From: a virus
Direction: 5' to 3' (one strand)
Virus record (IMG/VR): IMGVR_UViG_3300033997_000237
Coordinates: 1 to 21,929 of that record
Length of the DNA: 21,929 nt
The notes under the pieces are model-generated. The model was not told where the DNA came from and did no database searches. It saw only the letters and a program-made list of their open reading frames with translations. Numbering within the stretch: position 1 is the stretch's first letter; the number at the start of each line of letters is the position of its first letter. Both the position numbers and the translations under genes were made by a program. This document shows positions 3,405 through 20,457 of the stretch, piece after piece.

Positions 3405-4416
3405 AGCTGACAGATCCCGATTCGATGAGACTGCGCGCCTGCTGCTGGGCGGCGGCAATGTTGGACATCGGCTTGCGCTTACCCTCGAAGCCCTCCCACT
3501 CGCCGTTCAGACAGCGCGGGCGACCGATCTGAACCCAGCGTTGGGCGCCAGCCAGGTACCCGGCGAACTTCTGCGGCGCAAACAGGGTCATTGGCCGCAG
3601 GTATTCGGCCATTTTCAGGTTTGCGGACCAGTGCTCGCGCTTGAAGTCGATCACCAGTTGCAGATCGGCCACGGAGTAGCCCTCCGCCAGTCTGGCGTTG
3701 ATGTTCTGCAGGGTGGTTGGCTTGGCCTGATAGCGGCGATTGCATGCGGCGTTGAGGTGGTTCAGCACAGCCAGAGAATCCGCTGATGGCTCTGCCGTTT
3801 TTTTAGCCGGTTTTGTTTCGTCAGAAACAGAACAAGAGATCTGTTTATTATCTTCAGAGTTTATATTGTTATTAATGATAAGATCTTCGGCATGATACTC
3901 CGCACCTAACTCCGCGCCGCTGAGTTGGCGATCACCCTCTAACCCTATATCTGGTGCACTCTCAAACTCCGCGCCATACTCCGCGCTAAAGTGTTGCGAA
4001 ACTCCGCGCTGATAAGCATCGAAATTCAGCAAGCTGATGATGGTGTAACCGCTCTTGCCCTGCTTTGTCGTCCTGCTGATCGCCCCTTCCCCCTCGAAAT
4101 GGTCCAGCGCCCGGCGAGCCTGATCCTCAGACACGCCACACGCTTTTCCGAGCGAACGAGCAGAGCAAGCCAGTTGGCCTCGATGAATGGTGAGGCGGTT
4201 GCTATTGAAGGTGACTTCACGGCTCTCGTAGGCCGCATCCAGCAGCAAATGCAGCCACACGGACTTCTTGGCTACATCCTTGTACCAGGGGGCATTCAGC
4301 ATCGACGAGTAAGCGAGGCGGAAGCCATTGCGGGCATTTTCGCTCACGTTGCTACCTCTGCTGATAGGTTTGGAAATGGGGGCGCCTGCCCCCGGGAATT
4401 TGATAACGGTGTTCAT
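3382..4416 (-). CDS. Phage replication initiator, O-like (Phg_2220_C domain)
   Basis: A 344-residue protein. Residues 40-135 form a winged-helix DNA-binding domain (RGQLACSARSLGKACGVSEDQARRALDHFE...GYTIISLLNFDAYQ), as in phage O-type initiators. Residues 140-210 are a low-complexity linker with repeated GAE(Y/L/F) and an Asn-rich stretch. Residues 213-296 match the conserved phage C-terminal domain (VLNHLNAACNRRY...LAEGY...DFKREHW...YLRPMTLFAPQKFAGYL), which in related phages accompanies replication initiation. The linker DNA is itself the origin candidate. The start overlaps the methyltransferase stop by ATGA. Function as origin-binding initiator is inferred from the domains and the iterons within the gene. 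Confidence 0.8.
   Translation of the reverse strand: MNTVIKFPGAGAPISKPISRGSNVSENARNGFRLAYSSMLNAPWYKDVAKKSVWLHLLLDAAYESREVTFNSNRLTIHRGQLACSARSLGKACGVSEDQARRALDHFEGEGAISRTTKQGKSGYTIISLLNFDAYQRGVSQHFSAEYGAEFESAPDIGLEGDRQLSGAELGAEYHAEDLIINNNINSEDNKQISCSVSDETKPAKKTAEPSADSLAVLNHLNAACNRRYQAKPTTLQNINARLAEGYSVADLQLVIDFKREHWSANLKMAEYLRPMTLFAPQKFAGYLAGAQRWVQIGRPRCLNGEWEGFEGKRKPMSNIAAAQQQARSLIESGSVSYDDDTPL
3830..4009. other. Putative phage replication origin: iterons plus AT-rich region
   Basis: Inside the initiator gene, five direct copies of ACTCCGCGC (one with A for G) begin at 3897, 3909, 3966, 3978 and 4001. Two pairs are spaced 12 bp apart. Immediately beside them, 3830-3896 is strikingly AT-rich for this GC-rich window, with stretches such as TTTATTATC and TTATATTGTTATTAATG. 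Iterons for the initiator next to an unwinding region, placed in the middle of the initiator gene, is the arrangement of lambda ori in gene O. The repeats are also read as protein (GAEY, GAEL, GAEF), so codon-level repetition is an alternative. The AT-rich flank argues for an origin. Confidence 0.65.
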
Positions 4417-6035
4417 GCTGCCTCCTCATCGACAGCGGGAAGGTCGATTTCTGACAGGTGGAGGTCAATGCGCCGACCAATGAACTCCATGCACGGTCTC
4501 GCCATGGAGTTGCCGATCGCCTTGTAGCGCGGGCCGTCTGCGGCCATCCGGTGCGCATCGTCATCAGGCATGTCTGGGAAGTGGCGGCGCAAATAGGCCA
4601 ACTCATCTGCAATAAGCTTGTTGCGCTTAGCAGACGGGATCATCGTGTGGTTGTCTGGAAACCCCTGCAGGCGCTCGCACTCTACTGGGGTAAGGCGGCG
4701 AACTGCCATGCCTACCATCGCAGCAGGATAACCCTGCCCTACCTTTCCACCTCCGCTTGAGAGTGCTCCCGTTATTTTCCCATCCCCTCCCTCAAGGCGA
4801 ACCTCTTGGCGGCTGTTCTCTGCGAAGGCAACTGCCGGCGGACACCCTGCATTCGCATGGCTGCCTGCATGTCCGCCAGCTCGCAGTGTCGGAGACATGT
4901 CCTCAGACGCATCACCGCCACAGTCCTTGGAGCTGAACGCTATCGGCACAATAGGCTGCCCTCTCCCGGTGCCATCCTCACTTGCGTCGAAGTCCTCAGC
5001 TGTAAGCGTGTGGGTGATGTTGCCAGTGACGCAAGGCGCATTCTCTCGCACCAGTTCATCCCAGTTATTGGCGGCGAAGATGACGCGCTGGTCGTGGTCT
5101 TTGATGCTGCTGTATTTTGCTAAAACGGCATTCTCCTGCCCCTGATTGCGGCCCAGCGTGTGTGCCAGCTCTACGTTGGTGTCAGGGTCTTGGGTGCCGT
5201 GGACAACCATCGTCTCAGTTTCATAGTCGATGCGGCCCATACCTCCAGCATTGAGGCAATGGGAAATGTGCCCGGTACTGGTAGCAAGAGGTATCAGGTG
5301 TCCTGCTTGTCCTTGGTTGTCGTCTGCGCCACACGTTCCAACACCGTTTGCAGTAAGGGCGGCAACTGCCTTCCCCGCTTCTCGGCTCGGCGCAGAATCC
5401 CGGCGCACGCCTTCGCACTCAAAAAGAACTTTTGCGGGATCGAACCCTTCTCGAGCACTTGCGACAACGAACACACGGCGGCGGCGTTGGGCCACTCCGA
5501 AATATTGGGCATCGAGGATCCGCCACGCGATTGCTCTTTGGGGGCCAAGCACACAACCAGCGTTTTCCCATCTGCGCCCTGGAGGGACGAGCTCGCAATC
5601 TTCCCCTGCAAGGAAGCCAAGGAATGCGCCAAAAGCGTTGTCTTTTGACGAGAGGACGCCTGGGACGTTTTCCCAGACGGTGATGCAGGGAACATCTCCA
5701 GCTGCTGCTCGTTTTTGATCAATGGCATTGGCAAGCTCCACGTACTTGATAGTCAGAAAACCACGGTCATCAGCCAGCCCCTCGCGGGCACCGGCAACGG
5801 AAAACGCCTGGCATGGCGTTCCGCCGACAAGGATGTCGGGAGCCACGACATCCCCCTTGAGGACAGCGGTAGCAATCTTGGTCATATCGCCAAGGTTGGT
5901 GACATGCGGCCAGTGGTGCGCCAGTACCGCGCTCGGGAACGGCTCAATCTCGGCGAACCACGCAGGGTTCCAGCCAAGCGGCTCCCAAGCCAGCGAGGCG
6001 GCTTCAATGCCGCTGCATACGCTTCCATAAATCAT
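4413..6035 (-). CDS. DNA cytosine-C5 methyltransferase
   Basis: A 540-residue C5 DNA methyltransferase that transfers methyl from S-adenosylmethionine to cytosine. Motifs in order: GSVCSGIEAAS (4-14, motif I), GGTPCQAFSVAG (71-82, motif IV with catalytic C75), ENVPG (122-126, VI), QRRRRVFVVA (183-192, VIII), RRLTPVECERLQGFP (446-460, IX) and GNSMA (508-512, X). The start ATG at 6035 gives MIYGSVCSG and overlaps the upstream stop by ATGA. An upstream ATG at 6074 would add 13 atypical residues. The region 215-440 is a very long target-recognition section made of repeated modules (ALTANGVG, HTLGRNQG, HTLTAEDF, PTLRAGGH, GALSSGGG). No partner restriction gene is present, so protection of phage DNA from host restriction is likely. 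Confidence 0.93.
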   Translation of the reverse strand: MIYGSVCSGIEAASLAWEPLGWNPAWFAEIEPFPSAVLAHHWPHVTNLGDMTKIATAVLKGDVVAPDILVGGTPCQAFSVAGAREGLADDRGFLTIKYVELANAIDQKRAAAGDVPCITVWENVPGVLSSKDNAFGAFLGFLAGEDCELVPPGRRWENAGCVLGPQRAIAWRILDAQYFGVAQRRRRVFVVASAREGFDPAKVLFECEGVRRDSAPSREAGKAVAALTANGVGTCGADDNQGQAGHLIPLATSTGHISHCLNAGGMGRIDYETETMVVHGTQDPDTNVELAHTLGRNQGQENAVLAKYSSIKDHDQRVIFAANNWDELVRENAPCVTGNITHTLTAEDFDASEDGTGRGQPIVPIAFSSKDCGGDASEDMSPTLRAGGHAGSHANAGCPPAVAFAENSRQEVRLEGGDGKITGALSSGGGKVGQGYPAAMVGMAVRRLTPVECERLQGFPDNHTMIPSAKRNKLIADELAYLRRHFPDMPDDDAHRMAADGPRYKAIGNSMARPCMEFIGRRIDLHLSEIDLPAVDEEAA

Positions 6036-11130: not shown

Positions 11131-11522
11131 AAACCACAGAAACGGGCATTTTAACGCTGGTGCGAGATCACGCCTTCTGGGCCGATGAGGTTAGCAGGCT
11201 AAAGGCGCTGGGTTCTGATGCTTATTCTCGGTGCAAAAGCGTTGATACAGCTGGGGAGGGAAGTAACTTTCACTCCTTTGGCACTCCATGCCTCGAGACG
11301 GTTGTGAATGAATACCGGTCACTAAAACAAGACCCTTACGAATGCATTGAGTTCGAAGAGTTCTATCGGGAGTGCGTCGATAAGGATGAGGTTTGTTGCT
11401 GGTGCCAGAAAGTGCGCGAGTACAAATTGAAGCGAGTCAGGGCGAGGGTGAGGCTTGGCCAAATTAGAAGCGCCATCACTCGCATAGGTCGCAGACTGAC
11501 AGCAGAAGGAGGTCCACTATGA
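11127..11522 (+). CDS. Hypothetical phage protein with Cys cluster (131 aa)
   Basis: A 131-residue protein from ATG 11127 (MKTTETGILTL), set by the ATGA overlap with the previous gene. A longer frame to 10833 is a shadow. The central part has ECVDKDEVCCWCQKVREYK with several cysteines (89-93), followed by a very basic helix (LKRVRARVRLGQIRSAITRIGRR), the look of a nucleic-acid-binding tail. The first two thirds are visibly less GC-rich than the neighbours, suggesting separate acquisition. The stop overlaps recE by ATGA. Function unknown. Confidence 0.7.
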   Translation: MKTTETGILTLVRDHAFWADEVSRLKALGSDAYSRCKSVDTAGEGSNFHSFGTPCLETVVNEYRSLKQDPYECIEFEEFYRECVDKDEVCCWCQKVREYKLKRVRARVRLGQIRSAITRIGRRLTAEGGPL

Positions 11523-12364
11523 ACGCCATCGCCGACACCTCCGCCGCGCACCCGCTGGGTCGGGTGTTCGGCCTCTCCAACGAGGAGTACCACGCAGGCC
11601 CCGGGGTCAGCAAAAGCCAGCTCGACCAGATCGCCGAGAGCCCGGCAACTTACATCTGGGCCAAGAATGCCCCGCTCGACCAGGAGAAACTCAAGGCCTT
11701 CGACATGGGCAGCGCCATCCACTGCCTGCTGCTGGAGCCCGACGAGTTCAAAGACCGCTTCATCATCGCCCCACCGTTCAACCGCCGCACCAATGCCGGC
11801 AAGGCAGAAGAGGCCGAGTTCCTGGCCAGCTGCGCAGAGCTGGGCAAGACGGTGATGGATGCCGAGGAGGGACGCAAGCTCTACCTAATGCGCGACAGCG
11901 TGATGGCCCACCCGGACGCACGCTGGCTGCTGGAGCAGGAAGGGCACAGCGAGGCCTCCTTCTACTGGATTGACCCCCAGACCCAGGAGCTGTGCCGGAT
12001 CCGCCCCGACCGCCACCTGAGCAATCACCCCATCATGATCGACGTGAAGTCGGTGGACGATATGGGGCGCTTCGAGCGCCATGTCGAGGACTTCCGCTAC
12101 CACGTGCAGGATGCCATGTACTCCGAAGGCTTCCACCGGGTGATGGGCGAGGAGCCGGAATTCGTCTTTCTGGCTGTCAGCACCAGCGTGAACTGTGGCC
12201 GCTACCCGGTGCGGGTGCGCCCCCTGACGGATGACTGGAAGGATGCAGGCAAGGACCTGTTCCGCCGCGACCTCCATCGCTTCCACGACTGCCGGGTCAA
12301 CAACGACTGGCACGACTTCAAACCCCTCCAGCGCCCAGCCTGGGCGACAAGGAAAGCAGCATGA
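11519..12364 (+). CDS. RecE-like exodeoxyribonuclease VIII (PD-(D/E)XK)
   Basis: A 281-residue protein matching the C-terminal nuclease domain of RecE. Visible elements: LSNEEYHAGPGVSKSQLDQI (19-38), FDMGSAIHCLLLEP with H68 (61-74), E145 in SEASFYW, CRIRPDR with D164, IMIDVKSVDD with D175 and K177, and the YHVQDAMYSEGF helix with H195 and Q197. It digests the 5' strand of double-stranded ends, leaving 3' tails for the RecT partner next door. It lacks the long N-terminal extension of Rac RecE, as is normal for compact phage forms. Translational coupling by ATGA exists on both sides. Confidence 0.92.
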   Translation: MNAIADTSAAHPLGRVFGLSNEEYHAGPGVSKSQLDQIAESPATYIWAKNAPLDQEKLKAFDMGSAIHCLLLEPDEFKDRFIIAPPFNRRTNAGKAEEAEFLASCAELGKTVMDAEEGRKLYLMRDSVMAHPDARWLLEQEGHSEASFYWIDPQTQELCRIRPDRHLSNHPIMIDVKSVDDMGRFERHVEDFRYHVQDAMYSEGFHRVMGEEPEFVFLAVSTSVNCGRYPVRVRPLTDDWKDAGKDLFRRDLHRFHDCRVNNDWHDFKPLQRPAWATRKAA

Positions 12365-13338
12365 GCAACATCACCAGCCTCAAACAGCAGGCGGCCGATA
12401 ACTTCGCCGCCCAGTTCCCCATCCTCGTCCAGCGTGGCATCGACGAGCCGACCTGGAACGCCCTGTGCAACACCATCTACCCGGGTGCCAACCCCGATTC
12501 GGTGGTCATGGCCATCGACTACTGCAAGGCGCGCGGCCTGGACATCCTGCTCAAGCCGGTCCACCTCGTCCCCATGCAGGTGACCGATGCCCGCACCAAG
12601 GAGAAGGTATGGCGTGATGTGCCGATACCCGGGATCGGCATGTACCGGATCCAGGCCGATCGCTCCGGCAACTACGCAGGTGCCGACGAACCCGTGTTCG
12701 GGCCGGATGTGACCGAGGAGTTCCAAGACCCCTACAACCAGAGCGCCAAGATCAAGGTCACCTACCCGCAGTGGTGCAAGTACACCGTCTACAAGATGGT
12801 CAATGGCCAGCGGGTTGCCTTCCGCGCCATGGAACGCTGGAAGGAAAACTACGCCACCCAGAGCGGCAAGACCGAATGCCCCAACGCCATGTGGCGCAAG
12901 CGATCCTACGCCCAACTCGCCAAGTGCACCGAGGCGCAGGCGCTGCGCAAGGCCTGGCCGGAGATCGGCAGCGAGCCCATCGCCGAGGAGATGGAGGGCA
13001 AGGAGATCATCATCAACGAGATCCCAGGCAACCAGCCACAGCAGACTTCCCCAGCGAAGAGCCGCACCCTGGATGCCATCCGCAGCCAGAGCACCGAATC
13101 GGTCACCCTGGAACATGAGCAGATGGCCGAACCCGCCCAAGCGGACCACGCCAACGCCTACGCCGACCACTGTGCCGCCATAGAGGGATCCAGCGATACC
13201 GCCGAGTGGCAGCAGGCCTACACCACCGCCTGGACCTGGGCCAACGAAACCGGCGACCAGAACATCATCGCAGGTATCAAGCAGATCGCCGGCGAGCGCA
13301 AGAAGCAGCTCAGTGCCGGGAACGGCGCCCAGCAATAA
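12361..13338 (+). CDS. RecT/Bet-family single-strand annealing protein
   Basis: A 325-residue phage recombination protein of the Redbeta/RecT superfamily. The core covers residues 20-215: FPILVQRGIDEPTWNALCNTIYPGA, MAIDYCKARGLDILLKPVHLVPM, IPGIGMYRIQADRSGNYAG, AKIKVTYPQWCKYTVYKMVNGQRVAF and MWRKRSYAQLAKCTEAQALRKAWPE. The C-terminal 100 residues are a flexible linker and a short helical domain, where relatives contact host SSB or the exonuclease. It anneals complementary strands produced by the RecE-like enzyme, whose stop overlaps its start by ATGA. A terminator-like hairpin lies just after its stop. Confidence 0.93.
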   Translation: MSNITSLKQQAADNFAAQFPILVQRGIDEPTWNALCNTIYPGANPDSVVMAIDYCKARGLDILLKPVHLVPMQVTDARTKEKVWRDVPIPGIGMYRIQADRSGNYAGADEPVFGPDVTEEFQDPYNQSAKIKVTYPQWCKYTVYKMVNGQRVAFRAMERWKENYATQSGKTECPNAMWRKRSYAQLAKCTEAQALRKAWPEIGSEPIAEEMEGKEIIINEIPGNQPQQTSPAKSRTLDAIRSQSTESVTLEHEQMAEPAQADHANAYADHCAAIEGSSDTAEWQQAYTTAWTWANETGDQNIIAGIKQIAGERKKQLSAGNGAQQ

Positions 13339-15758: not shown

Positions 15759-15895
15759 GCCTCTACCGCCACCGCGGCATGGTGCAAGACCGCAAGACGA
15801 AACAGCTACTCCAACAACGCCAGCGAAAACGCGACGAGATAGAGCGCCGCCAGCTGGCCAGCCAGCTTGGCATCGACCCCAAGGAGGTGCGCTGA
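15755..15895 (+). CDS. Small basic protein (46 aa)
   Basis: A 46-residue very basic protein (MSLYRHRGMV then RKTKQLLQQRQRKRDEIERRQL) with start overlapping the previous stop by ATGA and stop overlapping the methyltransferase ATG by one base (TGATG). It ends SQLGIDPKEVR. Helical and Arg/Gln-rich, it may bind nucleic acid or bridge its neighbours. No family recognised. The double coupling makes it a credible gene. Confidence 0.65.
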   Translation: MSLYRHRGMVQDRKTKQLLQQRQRKRDEIERRQLASQLGIDPKEVR

Positions 15896-16497
15896 TGGCG
15901 ATCCTGATTGATAGCGGCACACCGGCCAGCGACAAGAACTTTTGGGCCACAACATGGGAGTGCTTCGCAGATGCCCAAGCACTCTATGGTCGGCGTTTCG
16001 AGTGCGATGTTGCCGCCGAACCACTCACTGCCAAGTGCAGCCGCTACTTCACCAGCCACCTGCTGCTTGATAAGTTGCTGGACTACCGCACCCGGGAAGA
16101 TGTACGAGCCCAGATTCGTGAGGCCGAGCAGGCTGGCACGGTCTGTATCGGCATCGACAGCCTCAACCTTGACTGGCCAGAGCACTGGTGGTGTAACCCG
16201 CCGTTCGACCTGAAACCTGAGTTCATCACCCAGGCCCGCCAGCAGCAAGCCAATGGCAGGCCAGGGATGATGCTGCTGCCATACGAGCCGCTGACAACAT
16301 GGTGGCGCCGCTTGCTGGCCGAGGATGTGATCATCTACGAGCCGGATGGCCGTTATCAGTTCTACGAGCGCGATGGCGCAACCAGAAAGAGCGGAGCCAA
16401 CTTCGGTTGCGCCCTGATTGCCTTCCCCACCATGAAAGTGGGTGCATCCCCTCGCATCCCCTTTGTGCGCGGCATTGGCTCTAAGCGCGCGGCCTGA
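15895..16497 (+). CDS. Phage DNA N6-adenine methyltransferase (PF05869-type)
   Basis: A 200-residue enzyme of the phage Dam family. FECDVAAEPLTAKC (36-48) supplies the cofactor-side acidic residue, and WWCNPPFD (98-105) is the catalytic NPPF motif that marks adenine-N6 enzymes. LPYEPLTTWW (about 128-137) and YQFYERDGATRKSGANFG continue the family pattern. It methylates adenine in duplex DNA, probably GATC-like sites as for characterised relatives, to protect phage DNA or influence regulation. It is full length for the family and starts by one-base overlap with the 46-residue gene. Together with the C5 enzyme the phage carries two orphan methyltransferases. Confidence 0.88.
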   Translation: MAILIDSGTPASDKNFWATTWECFADAQALYGRRFECDVAAEPLTAKCSRYFTSHLLLDKLLDYRTREDVRAQIREAEQAGTVCIGIDSLNLDWPEHWWCNPPFDLKPEFITQARQQQANGRPGMMLLPYEPLTTWWRRLLAEDVIIYEPDGRYQFYERDGATRKSGANFGCALIAFPTMKVGASPRIPFVRGIGSKRAA

Positions 16498-16755: not shown

Positions 16756-17907
16756 ATGAACCATTCCGTTATCAAATCCGCCAGCATCTACAGTGCCAAG
16801 CTCCCAGCCATCGCAGCAATGCGCGAACACCTGGCCGAGCTCTCCTTCACTCCGCTCACTGAAAATCAGCTCAGCTGCGCCGGGTTCGAGAACAACCTGG
16901 TGACCGGCGAGCTTGTTACCAACCTGCCAGGCGTCGGCTACGCATTCGTCGTGCGCCAAGACACTAAGCTCATTCCGACCAAGATCGTCAACCGCAAGCT
17001 CAAAGAGCGCGTTGATGCGCTGATCAGCTCCGGTCTGCGGGAGAAGGTTACTCGCAAAGAGAAACTGGCCATGAAGGACCAATTGATTGTTGAGATGGCC
17101 GCCACGGCTGAATATGAAACCACGCTCATCCACGCCCTGTACGACCAGAGCAACGAGTTGCTGTACCTCAACACCACCACCAAGCGCCCGCTCAAGGTGG
17201 TCATGCACCTGCTGGTGAAGTGCATGGGCTCCCTCAAGACCCAGACCATCCACATCGACGACATCAAGATGGGGATCAGCAACCGCCTGAAAGACTACCT
17301 GACCGATAGTGCAGAGCGCCCGGAAGCGCTCGGCCCCTTCTCCCCGCTCCAGTTCGTCAAGCTCAAGTCTGCCGACACCGCGCAAGAGATGGTGACCTTC
17401 AAGGGCATGGATCTCAACGGGGATCGCGCATCCGATGTGGTTTCCCTGCTGGAAGCTGGCTACCAGGTGGAAGAGCTGGAACTGTGGCACGAACCCATCA
17501 GCTTCAAGCTAAACAGCGATTTCAGCCTGCGCGCCATCACCATTCCGGATTACGACTCTGATGATGATGCCGATGACTACGCCCACCACTGGCGCCAGTG
17601 CAACGCTGCGAACCTCATCCTGCTGTCGAAGGCCATCACCGACCTCTGCACCATGATGGACTACCAAGCCCCGGCAGAGGAGAAAGCGGCATGTGAAGCA
17701 GTTCCGGCAGATCAAGACCAGCTTTATCAAGATGCCGTTGAATTCGTAATGGAGTCAGGCAGGGCTTCTGTCAGTGCAATCCAGCGTAATTTCAGGATTG
17801 GATACAACCGCGCAGCGTGGCTTGTTGAAGCCATGGAGACCAGGGGCATCATAAGTACGCCCGACTCGCAGGGTCTCCGGAAAGTCATTGCCGGAGGTGC
17901 CGCATGA
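16756..17907 (+). CDS. rdgC: RdgC fused to a C-terminal FtsK gamma domain
   Basis: A 383-residue protein; AGGACCCAGACC (16744-16755) abuts its ATG. Residues 1-302 correspond to RdgC (normally about 300 residues), the ring-forming DNA-binding protein that restrains RecA. Matching features are the AFT/SFTPLTENQ region, the repeated helical segment KEKLAMKDQLIVEMAATA, and the long acidic C-terminal part. After a short linker (303-320), residues 321-380 (DQLYQDAVEFVMESGRASVSAIQ, then RNFRIGYNRAAWLVEAMETRG) are a clear FtsK gamma winged helix, the domain that reads KOPS DNA and activates XerCD at dif. The fusion would couple RecA control to an FtsK-type DNA-recognition head. The domain calls are firm; the joint function is inference. 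Stop overlaps the next gene by ATGA. Confidence 0.88.
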   Translation: MNHSVIKSASIYSAKLPAIAAMREHLAELSFTPLTENQLSCAGFENNLVTGELVTNLPGVGYAFVVRQDTKLIPTKIVNRKLKERVDALISSGLREKVTRKEKLAMKDQLIVEMAATAEYETTLIHALYDQSNELLYLNTTTKRPLKVVMHLLVKCMGSLKTQTIHIDDIKMGISNRLKDYLTDSAERPEALGPFSPLQFVKLKSADTAQEMVTFKGMDLNGDRASDVVSLLEAGYQVEELELWHEPISFKLNSDFSLRAITIPDYDSDDDADDYAHHWRQCNAANLILLSKAITDLCTMMDYQAPAEEKAACEAVPADQDQLYQDAVEFVMESGRASVSAIQRNFRIGYNRAAWLVEAMETRGIISTPDSQGLRKVIAGGAA

Positions 17908-18248
17908 CCGACCTCACCATAACCGACACCAAGGACGTCTGGGTGGTTTACACCAACACCGACCTCACCGAGGGGCGTGGGCATCAGCACCCGATCCACG
18001 TCTGCGGATCAGCATCCACCGCCGCACGCATGGCGACACGCAAGGGCGTCCAGGGGAGCGACGCCAACGTCAGCAAGGAGATCGCCGTGAAGGTGCGCGG
18101 CAGTTGGCTGGCGCCGGTGAGCATCATCGAGCCCAACGACGCAGATCGCCGCGCTGACGCGCTCAACGCCGAGCGCCTGCGGGTGATGGACAAGGCCCGG
18201 GCCGCTGGCCTGACGGACGACGAAATCAGAATGCTGGGGGATGTATGA
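17904..18248 (+). CDS. Hypothetical phage protein (114 aa)
   Basis: A 114-residue protein starting by ATGA overlap with the RdgC fusion. The first half alternates strands (VWVVYTNTDLTEGRGHQHP, ATRKGVQGSDANVSKEIAVKVRGSWLAPVSII). The second half is a charged helix ending GLTDDEIRMLGDV. The fold resembles small accessory proteins seen in many prophage early operons, but I do not recognise a named family. It overlaps the following gene by ATGA. Confidence 0.7.
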   Translation: MTDLTITDTKDVWVVYTNTDLTEGRGHQHPIHVCGSASTAARMATRKGVQGSDANVSKEIAVKVRGSWLAPVSIIEPNDADRRADALNAERLRVMDKARAAGLTDDEIRMLGDV

Positions 18249-20046: not shown

Positions 20047-20457
20047 ATGCAGCAACTTCAACTGACCATCGACCAGGACAGCCAGCTTCTCAACGAGCTG
20101 GTCAGCGCCGTGCGCTCCCCCACCCTTTCCCGATCGGCCAAGCTCGCCGAGATCGGCCGCATCCTGGCGCACTTCGACCTGCCCATCGAAGCGCCCCGGG
20201 TTGCCGGCCAGCTCTGGAGCGCCACCGAGTTGGGCAGGGAGCTGGGGGTCAGCGCCCAGGCCATCGGCAGGCTGGCCAACCAGCACAACCTGAAAATCAC
20301 CGAACTGGGTGAATACCGCCTTGACCAGGCGGCAAACTCCCGCAAGCAAGTTCAAACCTTTTACTACAACCAGCTCGGGCGTCACCGGCTCGAGTCTCTT
20401 TTAAACGCGAGGACCAAACCATGCAGCAATTTGTCTACCCCTGCGCCAAGTGGGTAA
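20047..20457 (+). CDS. HTH-containing hypothetical protein (136 aa)
   Basis: A 136-residue protein with GGAGGG 13-17 bases upstream of ATG 20047. Residues 57-95 (QLWSATELGRELGVSAQAIGRLANQHNLKITELGEYRLD) form a helix-turn-helix of the type found in phage accessory regulators. The end overlaps the excisionase gene by 37 bases, and the leader for that gene is read here as NARTKP. A DNA-binding regulator of excision or early transcription is likely (inference). Confidence 0.7.
   Translation: MQQLQLTIDQDSQLLNELVSAVRSPTLSRSAKLAEIGRILAHFDLPIEAPRVAGQLWSATELGRELGVSAQAIGRLANQHNLKITELGEYRLDQAANSRKQVQTFYYNQLGRHRLESLLNARTKPCSNLSTPAPSG

What the first reader, a model, noticed from the sequence alone, without database searches (positions are those of the whole stretch)
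16756..17907. RdgC joined to an FtsK gamma (KOPS-reading) domain in one prophage protein
The first about 300 residues are a full-length RdgC and the last 60 are an FtsK gamma winged helix with the invariant FRIGYNRAA core. RdgC forms rings on DNA that oppose RecA. FtsK gamma reads KOPS (GGGNAGGG) and switches on XerCD at dif. Both parts are known separately; the combination would place a RecA-restraining ring at a DNA address used in chromosome segregation, or let the phage interfere with host FtsK-dimer-resolution. It lies in the same operon as RecE/RecT. By eye, KOPS-like octamers occur on the minus strand at 606-613, 2630-2637, 4084-4091 and 4732-4739 and on the plus strand at 11253-11260 and 20232-20239, that is, each directed with transcription. 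This was not an exhaustive count and GC content alone may explain it.
Basis: partly seen in the sequence, partly recalled or inferred. Interest (0 to 1): 0.75.

Follow-up and report, generated by a model that had tools for sequence, protein, structure and literature searches.

The report
Phage RdgC with FtsK gamma tail
A prophage gene joins a DNA-encircling, RecA-restraining protein to the small domain that the cell-division motor FtsK uses to read DNA; the join recurs in many phages as a swappable tail, but in this copy a residue that reads the usual DNA address is replaced, so the tail probably does something other than read that address.

Summary
The fusion is real: ORF 16756-17907 (383 aa) holds a complete RdgC (Pfam E 1.7e-32) and an FtsK gamma winged helix (E 3.6e-24), with a low-confidence linker in an otherwise confident model (pLDDT 90.1). 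It is not unique: 94 distinct RdgC-gamma ORFs were seen, and 33 of 80 loci from an RdgC-only query carry gamma. The tail is portable: sister phages with 91-99% identical RdgC lack 213 bp, and the window's gamma DNA is 84-86% identical to that of a phage type whose RdgC is about 25% identical. Gamma is under purifying selection.

The KOPS reading is weak. R1300, which E. coli FtsK needs for normal KOPS reading, is Trp here (FtsK 71 of 72 Arg; RdgC-gamma 58 of 90 Arg, 20 Trp, 8 His). The six KOPS octamers are not above chance, and KOPS strand polarity also occurs in gamma-less sisters. The XerD-contact residues are intact.

Best reading: a ring protein with an added winged-helix DNA-address domain of changed specificity (0.5). 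Bold alternative: a KOPS-blind Xer activator (0.15). My literature searches found no paper describing the fusion.

The parts
16756..17907 (+). rdgC-gamma fusion gene, 383 aa, stop included
   Evidence: ORF; Pfam RdgC + FtsK_gamma; AlphaFold2 model pLDDT 90.1
16771..17652 (+). RdgC domain, residues 6-299
   Evidence: PF04381 E 1.7e-32; phrog_724 E 7.8e-70; Foldseek 2owl_A E 1.9e-21, TM 0.85 by target
17653..17709 (+). linker, residues 300-318
   Evidence: pLDDT below 50 at residues 310-314
17692..17904 (+). 213-bp segment present here and absent from sister phages whose RdgC stops after residue 312
   Evidence: 312-aa against 383-aa ORFs, near-identical next gene in L005, L007, L009, L013, L015
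17710..17889 (+). FtsK gamma winged-helix domain, residues 319-378
   Evidence: PF09397 E 3.6e-24; Foldseek 2ve9_B rmsd 0.6, TM 0.94 by target
17782..17811 (+). residues 343-352 QRNFRIGYNR = E. coli FtsK 1288-1297, the XerD-contact and DNA-contact loop
   Evidence: alignment table; contacts and 9-aa activating peptide from PMC5052618 passages
17818..17820 (+). codon of Trp355, the position of E. coli FtsK R1300 (KOPS reading)
   Evidence: role of R1300 from PMC2680272 and PMC2533119 passages
11519..12364 (+). RecE-like exonuclease (DUF3799), same-strand module
   Evidence: PF12684 E 1.6e-23; phrog_412 exonuclease VIII E 1.1e-100
12361..13338 (+). RecT annealing protein
   Evidence: PF03837 E 1.1e-23
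15895..16497 (+). DNA N-6-adenine methyltransferase (Dam)
   Evidence: PF05869 E 2e-17
17904..18248 (+). next gene, ATGA overlap with the fusion stop; unknown function
   Evidence: same gene follows the 312-aa RdgC in gamma-less sisters

Best explanation
The protein is a phage recombination-module RdgC (a dimeric ring that encloses DNA and restrains RecA, inferred from the family) that carries on a flexible linker a portable winged-helix DNA-binding domain taken from the FtsK gamma family. Most likely the tail gives the otherwise non-specific ring a preferred DNA site and orientation for binding or loading. In about two thirds of the known fusions the tail still has the FtsK-type base-reading residues and could read KOPS; in the window's copy the reading residue R1300 is Trp, so it probably reads a changed or relaxed site on phage or host DNA. 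Shown: the two domains, the fold, the recurrence, the cassette transfer, the purifying selection, the Arg-to-Trp change. Inferred: ring formation, RecA restraint, DNA binding by the tail, the altered site.
For: Domains, confident fold with a low-confidence linker. Gamma is recurrent on phage RdgC: 94 distinct ORFs; 9 changes of gamma state on a tree of 73 representatives, at least 6 forced by well-supported branches. Cassette behaviour: clean 213-bp presence/absence; gamma DNA 84-86% identical over 159-174 bp between rdgC genes whose products are about 25% identical. dN 0.020 / dS 0.120 (against L004) and 0.082 / 0.644 (against L062) in gamma. The other partners of phage gamma that Pfam could name are DNA-handling proteins: NA37/NdpA, an H-NS C-terminal domain, a primase-like protein, and a small terminase in PMC8190038 (passages); a DNA address suits all of these. 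The DNA/XerD contact loop QR...IGYN is nearly invariant, while position 1300 changes to Trp or His in lineages spread over the tree.
Against: No target site was found: an 8-mer contrast of fused against gamma-less phages gave nothing that held in the window. The conserved loop contacts XerD as well as DNA, so its conservation does not separate the two roles (PMC5052618). Close sisters do without the tail. No experiment shows DNA binding by any phage RdgC-gamma.
Confidence: 0.5

Rival explanations
1. Xer reading: the tail is a KOPS-blind but Xer-competent gamma. RdgC-gamma lowers RecA crossing-over and at the same time activates host XerCD at dif without FtsK, so that chromosome (or phage) dimers are avoided and resolved by one protein, or Xer is mis-fired during infection.
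For: E. coli FtsK Q1288, R1289, R1292, I1293, G1294, N1296 (XerD contacts) are all identical in the window; the 9-aa activating peptide RQFRIGYNR is RNFRIGYNR here. FtsK with R1300A, E1303A, E1306A fails to read KOPS yet activates Xer (PMC2680272), and gamma fused to XerC or XerD activates without the motor (PMC5052618). Aeromonas XerD keeps E119, Q123, E183, E184, W188, H257.
Against: The same loop contacts DNA, so its conservation is expected anyway; gamma on primase, terminase or NdpA makes no obvious Xer sense. No clear dif-like site in the phage stretches: best 17 of 22 arm matches in 4 of 79 pieces with a hit, shuffles up to 16; window 13. Aeromonas XerD has I127V and Y187H. Tethering to RdgC does not bring gamma to XerD.
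Confidence: 0.15
2. One reading: gamma delivers the RdgC ring to canonical KOPS (GGGNAGGG).
For: 58 of 90 RdgC-gamma tails keep R1300 and 88 of 90 keep E1303. Around rdgC in 37 Arg-type representative loci KOPS on the opposite strand is 18 against 8.9 expected, with the reversed control 7 against 6.1; Trp-type 0 against 1.5, gamma-less 4 against 2.7. Before merging near-copies: 41 opposite, 12 same, control 9 and 12, in 61 Arg-type loci.
Against: The window's tail has Trp at 1300. Whole genomes: Arg-type 48 against 37.9 expected (rank 14 of 56 arrangements), Trp-type 33 against 31.7, gamma-less 65 against 56.0. Polarity is as strong in gamma-less sisters (9 same, 56 opposite), as expected if host FtsK shapes prophage DNA. 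R1300A alone keeps residual KOPS reading in FtsK (PMC2680272), so Trp does not prove blindness. The excess is one of many strand-by-class tests.
Confidence: 0.12
3. The tail only adds non-specific DNA affinity or solubility and is a mobile passenger with no address function.
For: Close sisters lack it; 47 of 80 loci of the RdgC-only query lack it.
Against: Purifying selection, near-invariant contact loop, repeated occurrence on RdgC.
Confidence: 0.15

Closest known systems
RdgC (PF04381; E. coli RdgC, PDB 2owl/2owy)
   Same: Whole domain and fold; phage form belongs to phrog_724.
   Different: Carries a C-terminal FtsK gamma domain; about 20% identity to E. coli RdgC in the structural alignment.
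FtsK gamma domain (PF09397; PDB 2ve8, 2ve9, 2j5p)
   Same: Same winged helix, 0.6 A rmsd to KOPS-bound P. aeruginosa gamma, 56% identity; XerD-contact residues as in E. coli.
   Different: No motor domain; on RdgC; R1300 replaced by Trp.
Gamma-domain small terminase of Bacillus phages Sam46/Sam112 (PMC8190038, passages seen)
   Same: FtsK gamma fused to a phage DNA-handling protein; host-derived gamma; function unknown.
   Different: Partner is TerS, gamma at the N-terminus, Gram-positive hosts. That paper calls the role of single gamma genes in phages unknown.
Unpublished deposits: Vibrio phages of the D60 type, Pseudomonas phage PA8, Vibrio phage ST2-1pr, Achromobacter phage CF418P1
   Same: RdgC-gamma architecture.
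   Different: Annotated as RdgC, 'exonuclease recombination-associated' or 'DNA translocase'; the gamma tail is not named in the rows seen; most have Arg at 1300, CF418P1 Ser, K243 Glu.

Membership tests
RdgC (PF04381) | Profile match over the curated cut-off across the domain | tested here: met
   113.4 bits, cut-off 25, profile 3-289 of 298
RdgC (PF04381) | RdgC fold of the toroidal protein | tested here: met
   Foldseek 2owl_A E 1.9e-21, TM 0.85 by target length
RdgC (PF04381) | Ring-shaped dimer, DNA binding, RecA inhibition | not testable with these tools
   Only a monomer was modelled; no assay
FtsK gamma domain (PF09397) | Profile match and winged-helix fold | tested here: met
   84.7 bits, cut-off 30.6; 2ve9_B rmsd 0.6
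FtsK gamma as KOPS reader | N1296, R1300, E1303 present | tested here: not met
   N and E kept, R1300 is Trp; role from PMC2533119 and PMC2680272 passages
FtsK gamma as KOPS reader | KOPS over-represented in the DNA it serves | tested here: not met
   Window 6 against 4.59; fused sister genomes 18 against reversed control 19
FtsK gamma as Xer activator | XerD-contact residues Q1288, R1289, R1292, I1293, G1294, N1296 | tested here: met
   6 of 6 identical to E. coli FtsK (contact table in PMC5052618)
FtsK gamma as Xer activator | Activation of XerCD-dif recombination | not testable with these tools
   Needs a plasmid resolution assay
FtsK/SpoIIIE translocase | RecA-like motor domain | tested here: not met
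   Only RdgC and FtsK_gamma match in Pfam

The most novel reading that the evidence does not exclude
RdgC-gamma is a phage-borne, FtsK-independent Xer controller: the ring suppresses RecA crossing-over while a KOPS-blind gamma with an intact XerD surface fires XerCD at host dif, so one protein both prevents and resolves dimers; the Trp/His forms are tails that have shed KOPS reading to keep only this role.
Probability: 0.15. Interest if true: 0.85.

Novelty: new variant of a known kind. Interest (0 to 1): 0.55.

Why it matters
FtsK gamma is known as part of a motor. Here it appears as a swappable tail on phage DNA-handling proteins, most often on RdgC in the set seen, with natural variants at a KOPS-reading residue and natural with/without pairs in otherwise near-identical phages. 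That makes two open questions directly testable: what single gamma domains do in phages (called unknown in PMC8190038), and whether DNA reading and XerD activation by gamma can be separated by evolution. It would also give RdgC, a non-specific DNA ring of poorly understood role, a possible site-directed form.

Tried and rejected
KOPS as the explanation of the window: count and polarity not special. A local KOPS excess near Arg-type rdgC-gamma genes is kept as suggestive only: many tests, related loci, host polarity as confounder.

A phage-specific site for the Trp-type tail: 6- to 8-mer contrast of three fused Trp-type genomes against five gamma-less ones; the best 8-mer is absent from the window, and another top word is a palindrome probably shaped by restriction avoidance. 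Rejected.

dif-like sites in the phages: four pieces scored 17 of 22, shuffles reached 16; nothing convincing.

Repeats behind two loci rich in KOPS: only weak short families. Frameshift or assembly artefact: unlikely, three other records. Gamma moved elsewhere in gamma-less sisters: none found in the stretches of six genomes that I fetched, which are incomplete for some.

Mistake mended: one search printed residue numbers two too low; one search has the right ones. In one search the genome G195 was counted without an rdgC hit in the fetched piece; its strand was taken as + from L014.

Full report
Observation. The ORF 16756-17907 reads through 383 codons. Pfam finds RdgC at residues 6-299 (E 1.7e-32) and FtsK_gamma at 319-378 (E 3.6e-24), both over their cut-offs; NCBIfam and PHROGs agree, and PDB sequences give FtsK gamma (2ve8, 2ve9, 2j5o, 2j5p) and RdgC (2owl, 2owy). 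An AlphaFold2 model from 41 rows has mean pLDDT 90.1, with residues 310-314 under 50; Foldseek puts the first part on 2owl (E 1.9e-21) and the tail on KOPS-bound gamma 2ve9 (rmsd 0.6). In the viral structure library the top match, W6AT81 (388 aa), aligns over 392 columns.

Surroundings. The window is a 21,929-base IMG/VR virus record. On the same strand upstream lie RecE-like, RecT, two unnamed genes, a Dam-type methyltransferase and a small ORF that ends 20 bases before the fusion. Close relatives come from Aeromonas where a name is given: phage phiARM81mr, A. enteropelogenes and A. salmonicida. That the window is an Aeromonas prophage is therefore inferred.

Presence and absence. A protein query of IMG/VR gave 15 loci. 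Three carry the 383-aa fusion (L002, L003 at 100%, L004 at 96%); twelve stop at residue 312 with 91-99% identity over the shared part, and so does phiARM81mr. In five of the twelve the next gene is near-identical to the window's, so the difference is a clean 213-bp segment. Among 37 Aeromonas species genomes, three have a phage-type RdgC at 37% identity or more: two without gamma, one a different, gamma-bearing type.

Recurrence. In the 186 loci held, 171 ORFs had gamma; 128 of these also had RdgC (94 distinct sequences, window included, near-copies not merged), 43 had another or no partner, and 18 RdgC ORFs had no gamma. Most of these loci came from scans that select gamma, so the share is not a frequency. 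On a tree of 73 representatives gamma state changes 9 times, at least 6 forced by well-supported branches. Some deep branches are long, and gamma-bearing rows are over-sampled, so gain and loss cannot be told apart everywhere.

Cassette transfer. The window's gamma is 83.9% and 85.5% identical in DNA over 174 and 159 bp to that of L062 and L051, while the RdgC parts are 24-25% identical in protein over 239 residues. The window's gamma is 81-83% identical in protein to those two, and 56% to Aeromonas FtsK gamma. So the tail most likely came from another phage's rdgC rather than directly from the host. In L147, the RdgC sister of Pseudomonas phage PA8, RdgC has no tail and the next ORF, an NA37/NdpA nucleoid protein, carries gamma instead; L141 shows the same arrangement. 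Gamma evolves under purifying selection: dN 0.020, dS 0.120 against L004; dN 0.082, dS 0.644 against L062.

Residues. FtsK reference: 72 gammas (2 Aeromonas, 30 best-scoring and 40 further ones that I picked from the listing of 176 gammaproteobacterial genomes with a match), all in open frames of 663 aa or more. Against 90 distinct RdgC-gamma tails (E. coli numbering): Q1288 72/72 and 90/90; R1289 72/72 and 87/90; R or K1292 71/72 and 90/90; G1294, Y1295, N1296 complete in both; I1293 60 I and 12 V against 90 I; R1300 71/72 Arg against 58 Arg, 20 Trp, 8 His, 4 other; E1303 72/72 and 88/90; E1306 72/72 against 73 Glu, 17 Gln. Of 41 distinct gammas with other or no partner, 37 have Arg at 1300, none Trp or His (this set was found with gamma patterns). 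In an alignment of 46 fusions the only invariant columns are G43 and Q343, R344, I348, G349, Y350, N351. On the RdgC tree Trp appears in 4 separate places and His in 5, but the window's and L051's Trp share one gamma by transfer, so the number of independent origins of Trp is uncertain.

[quoted passage not shown] the triple R1300A, E1303A, E1306A does not read KOPS (PMC2680272); N1296, R1300, E1303 are the KOPS residues tested in V. cholerae (PMC2533119). XerD is contacted by Q1288, R1289, R1292, I1293, G1294, N1296; the same surface binds KOPS DNA; the peptide 1289-1297 RQFRIGYNR on XerC activates recombination, less well than whole gamma (PMC5052618). The window has RNFRIGYNR. Aeromonas XerD keeps E119, Q123, E183, E184, W188, H257, with I127V and Y187H (numbering by my count along the alignment).

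KOPS. Window: 6 sites, 4.59 expected. Whole records, KOPS against the reversed motif: 18 and 19 in two fused relatives, 88 and 102 in nine gamma-less ones. Order-3 Markov expectation on fetched stretches: Arg-type 48 against 37.9 (13 phages), Trp-type 33 against 31.7 (5), His-type 11 against 6.2 (2), CF418P1 (Ser) 13 against 6.5, K243 (Glu) 3 against 1.1, gamma-less 65 against 56.0 (6); rank among 56 arrangements 14, 37, 6 and 29 for Arg, Trp, His and none. Strand polarity is as marked without gamma (9 same, 56 opposite) as with it, which fits host-driven polarity of acquired DNA; the abstract opening of PMC5993296 in a search listing argues along that line, and a study of temperate phages is recalled only. 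Within 3 kb of rdgC, 37 Arg-type representatives have 18 opposite-strand KOPS against 8.9 expected, Trp-type 0 against 1.5, gamma-less 4 against 2.7: suggestive that Arg-type tails may matter for KOPS, not proof.

Mechanism. I commit to an added DNA-address domain of changed specificity on a RecA-restraining ring (0.5). The other partners seen for gamma in phages are DNA-handling proteins where Pfam or PHROGs could name them (PMC8190038), which favours DNA over Xer as the common target. The Xer reading keeps 0.15 because its surface is intact and because loss of KOPS reading with kept Xer activity is a known separable state in FtsK.

Literature. Searches of the held library: RdgC with 'FtsK gamma' 0 papers; 'FtsK gamma', phage, prophage 4; RdgC, FtsK, phage, fusion 1, a V. 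cholerae SOS study seen as a listing only; FtsK_gamma 20, seen as a listing; RdgC, phage, prophage 18, seen as a listing apart from passages of two. None was seen to describe RdgC-gamma; most were not opened, and subscription papers are not held.

Noticed in passing
L147:1942-4192 and L141:1789-4183: Gamma-less rdgC directly followed by an NA37/NdpA nucleoid-protein gene that carries the FtsK gamma tail, where the sister phage PA8 has the tail on rdgC.
   Followed up: partly
L179:3401-4342: FtsK gamma joined to an H-NS C-terminal DNA-binding domain in one phage ORF (Pfam).
   Followed up: no
L148:2816-5959: FtsK gamma in the middle of a 1048-aa primase-like protein (Toprim_3, DUF5906).
   Followed up: no
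L025, L112, L130, L161: phrog_6576, a family of unknown function in phage contigs (L025 is a Pseudomonas phage), contains an FtsK gamma domain with KOPS-type residues.
   Followed up: partly
L038, L042 and other Arg-type loci: KOPS octamers on the strand opposite to rdgC-gamma are about twice the Markov expectation near the gene (18 against 8.9 in 37 representatives); not seen in Trp-type loci.
   Followed up: partly
L180:2648-4225: RdgC and gamma lie in two adjacent ORFs here, while its sister L176 has them in one; the gene looks broken or split.
   Followed up: no
window:13313-14491: The homologous position in phage phiARM81mr is annotated 'integrase'; Pfam and PHROGs (phrog_1376, unknown function) give no support for that here.
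   Followed up: no
L019, L020, L023, L024: A single-strand binding protein gene is annotated within 4 kb of rdgC-gamma in 4 of the 7 named fused phages fetched.
   Followed up: no
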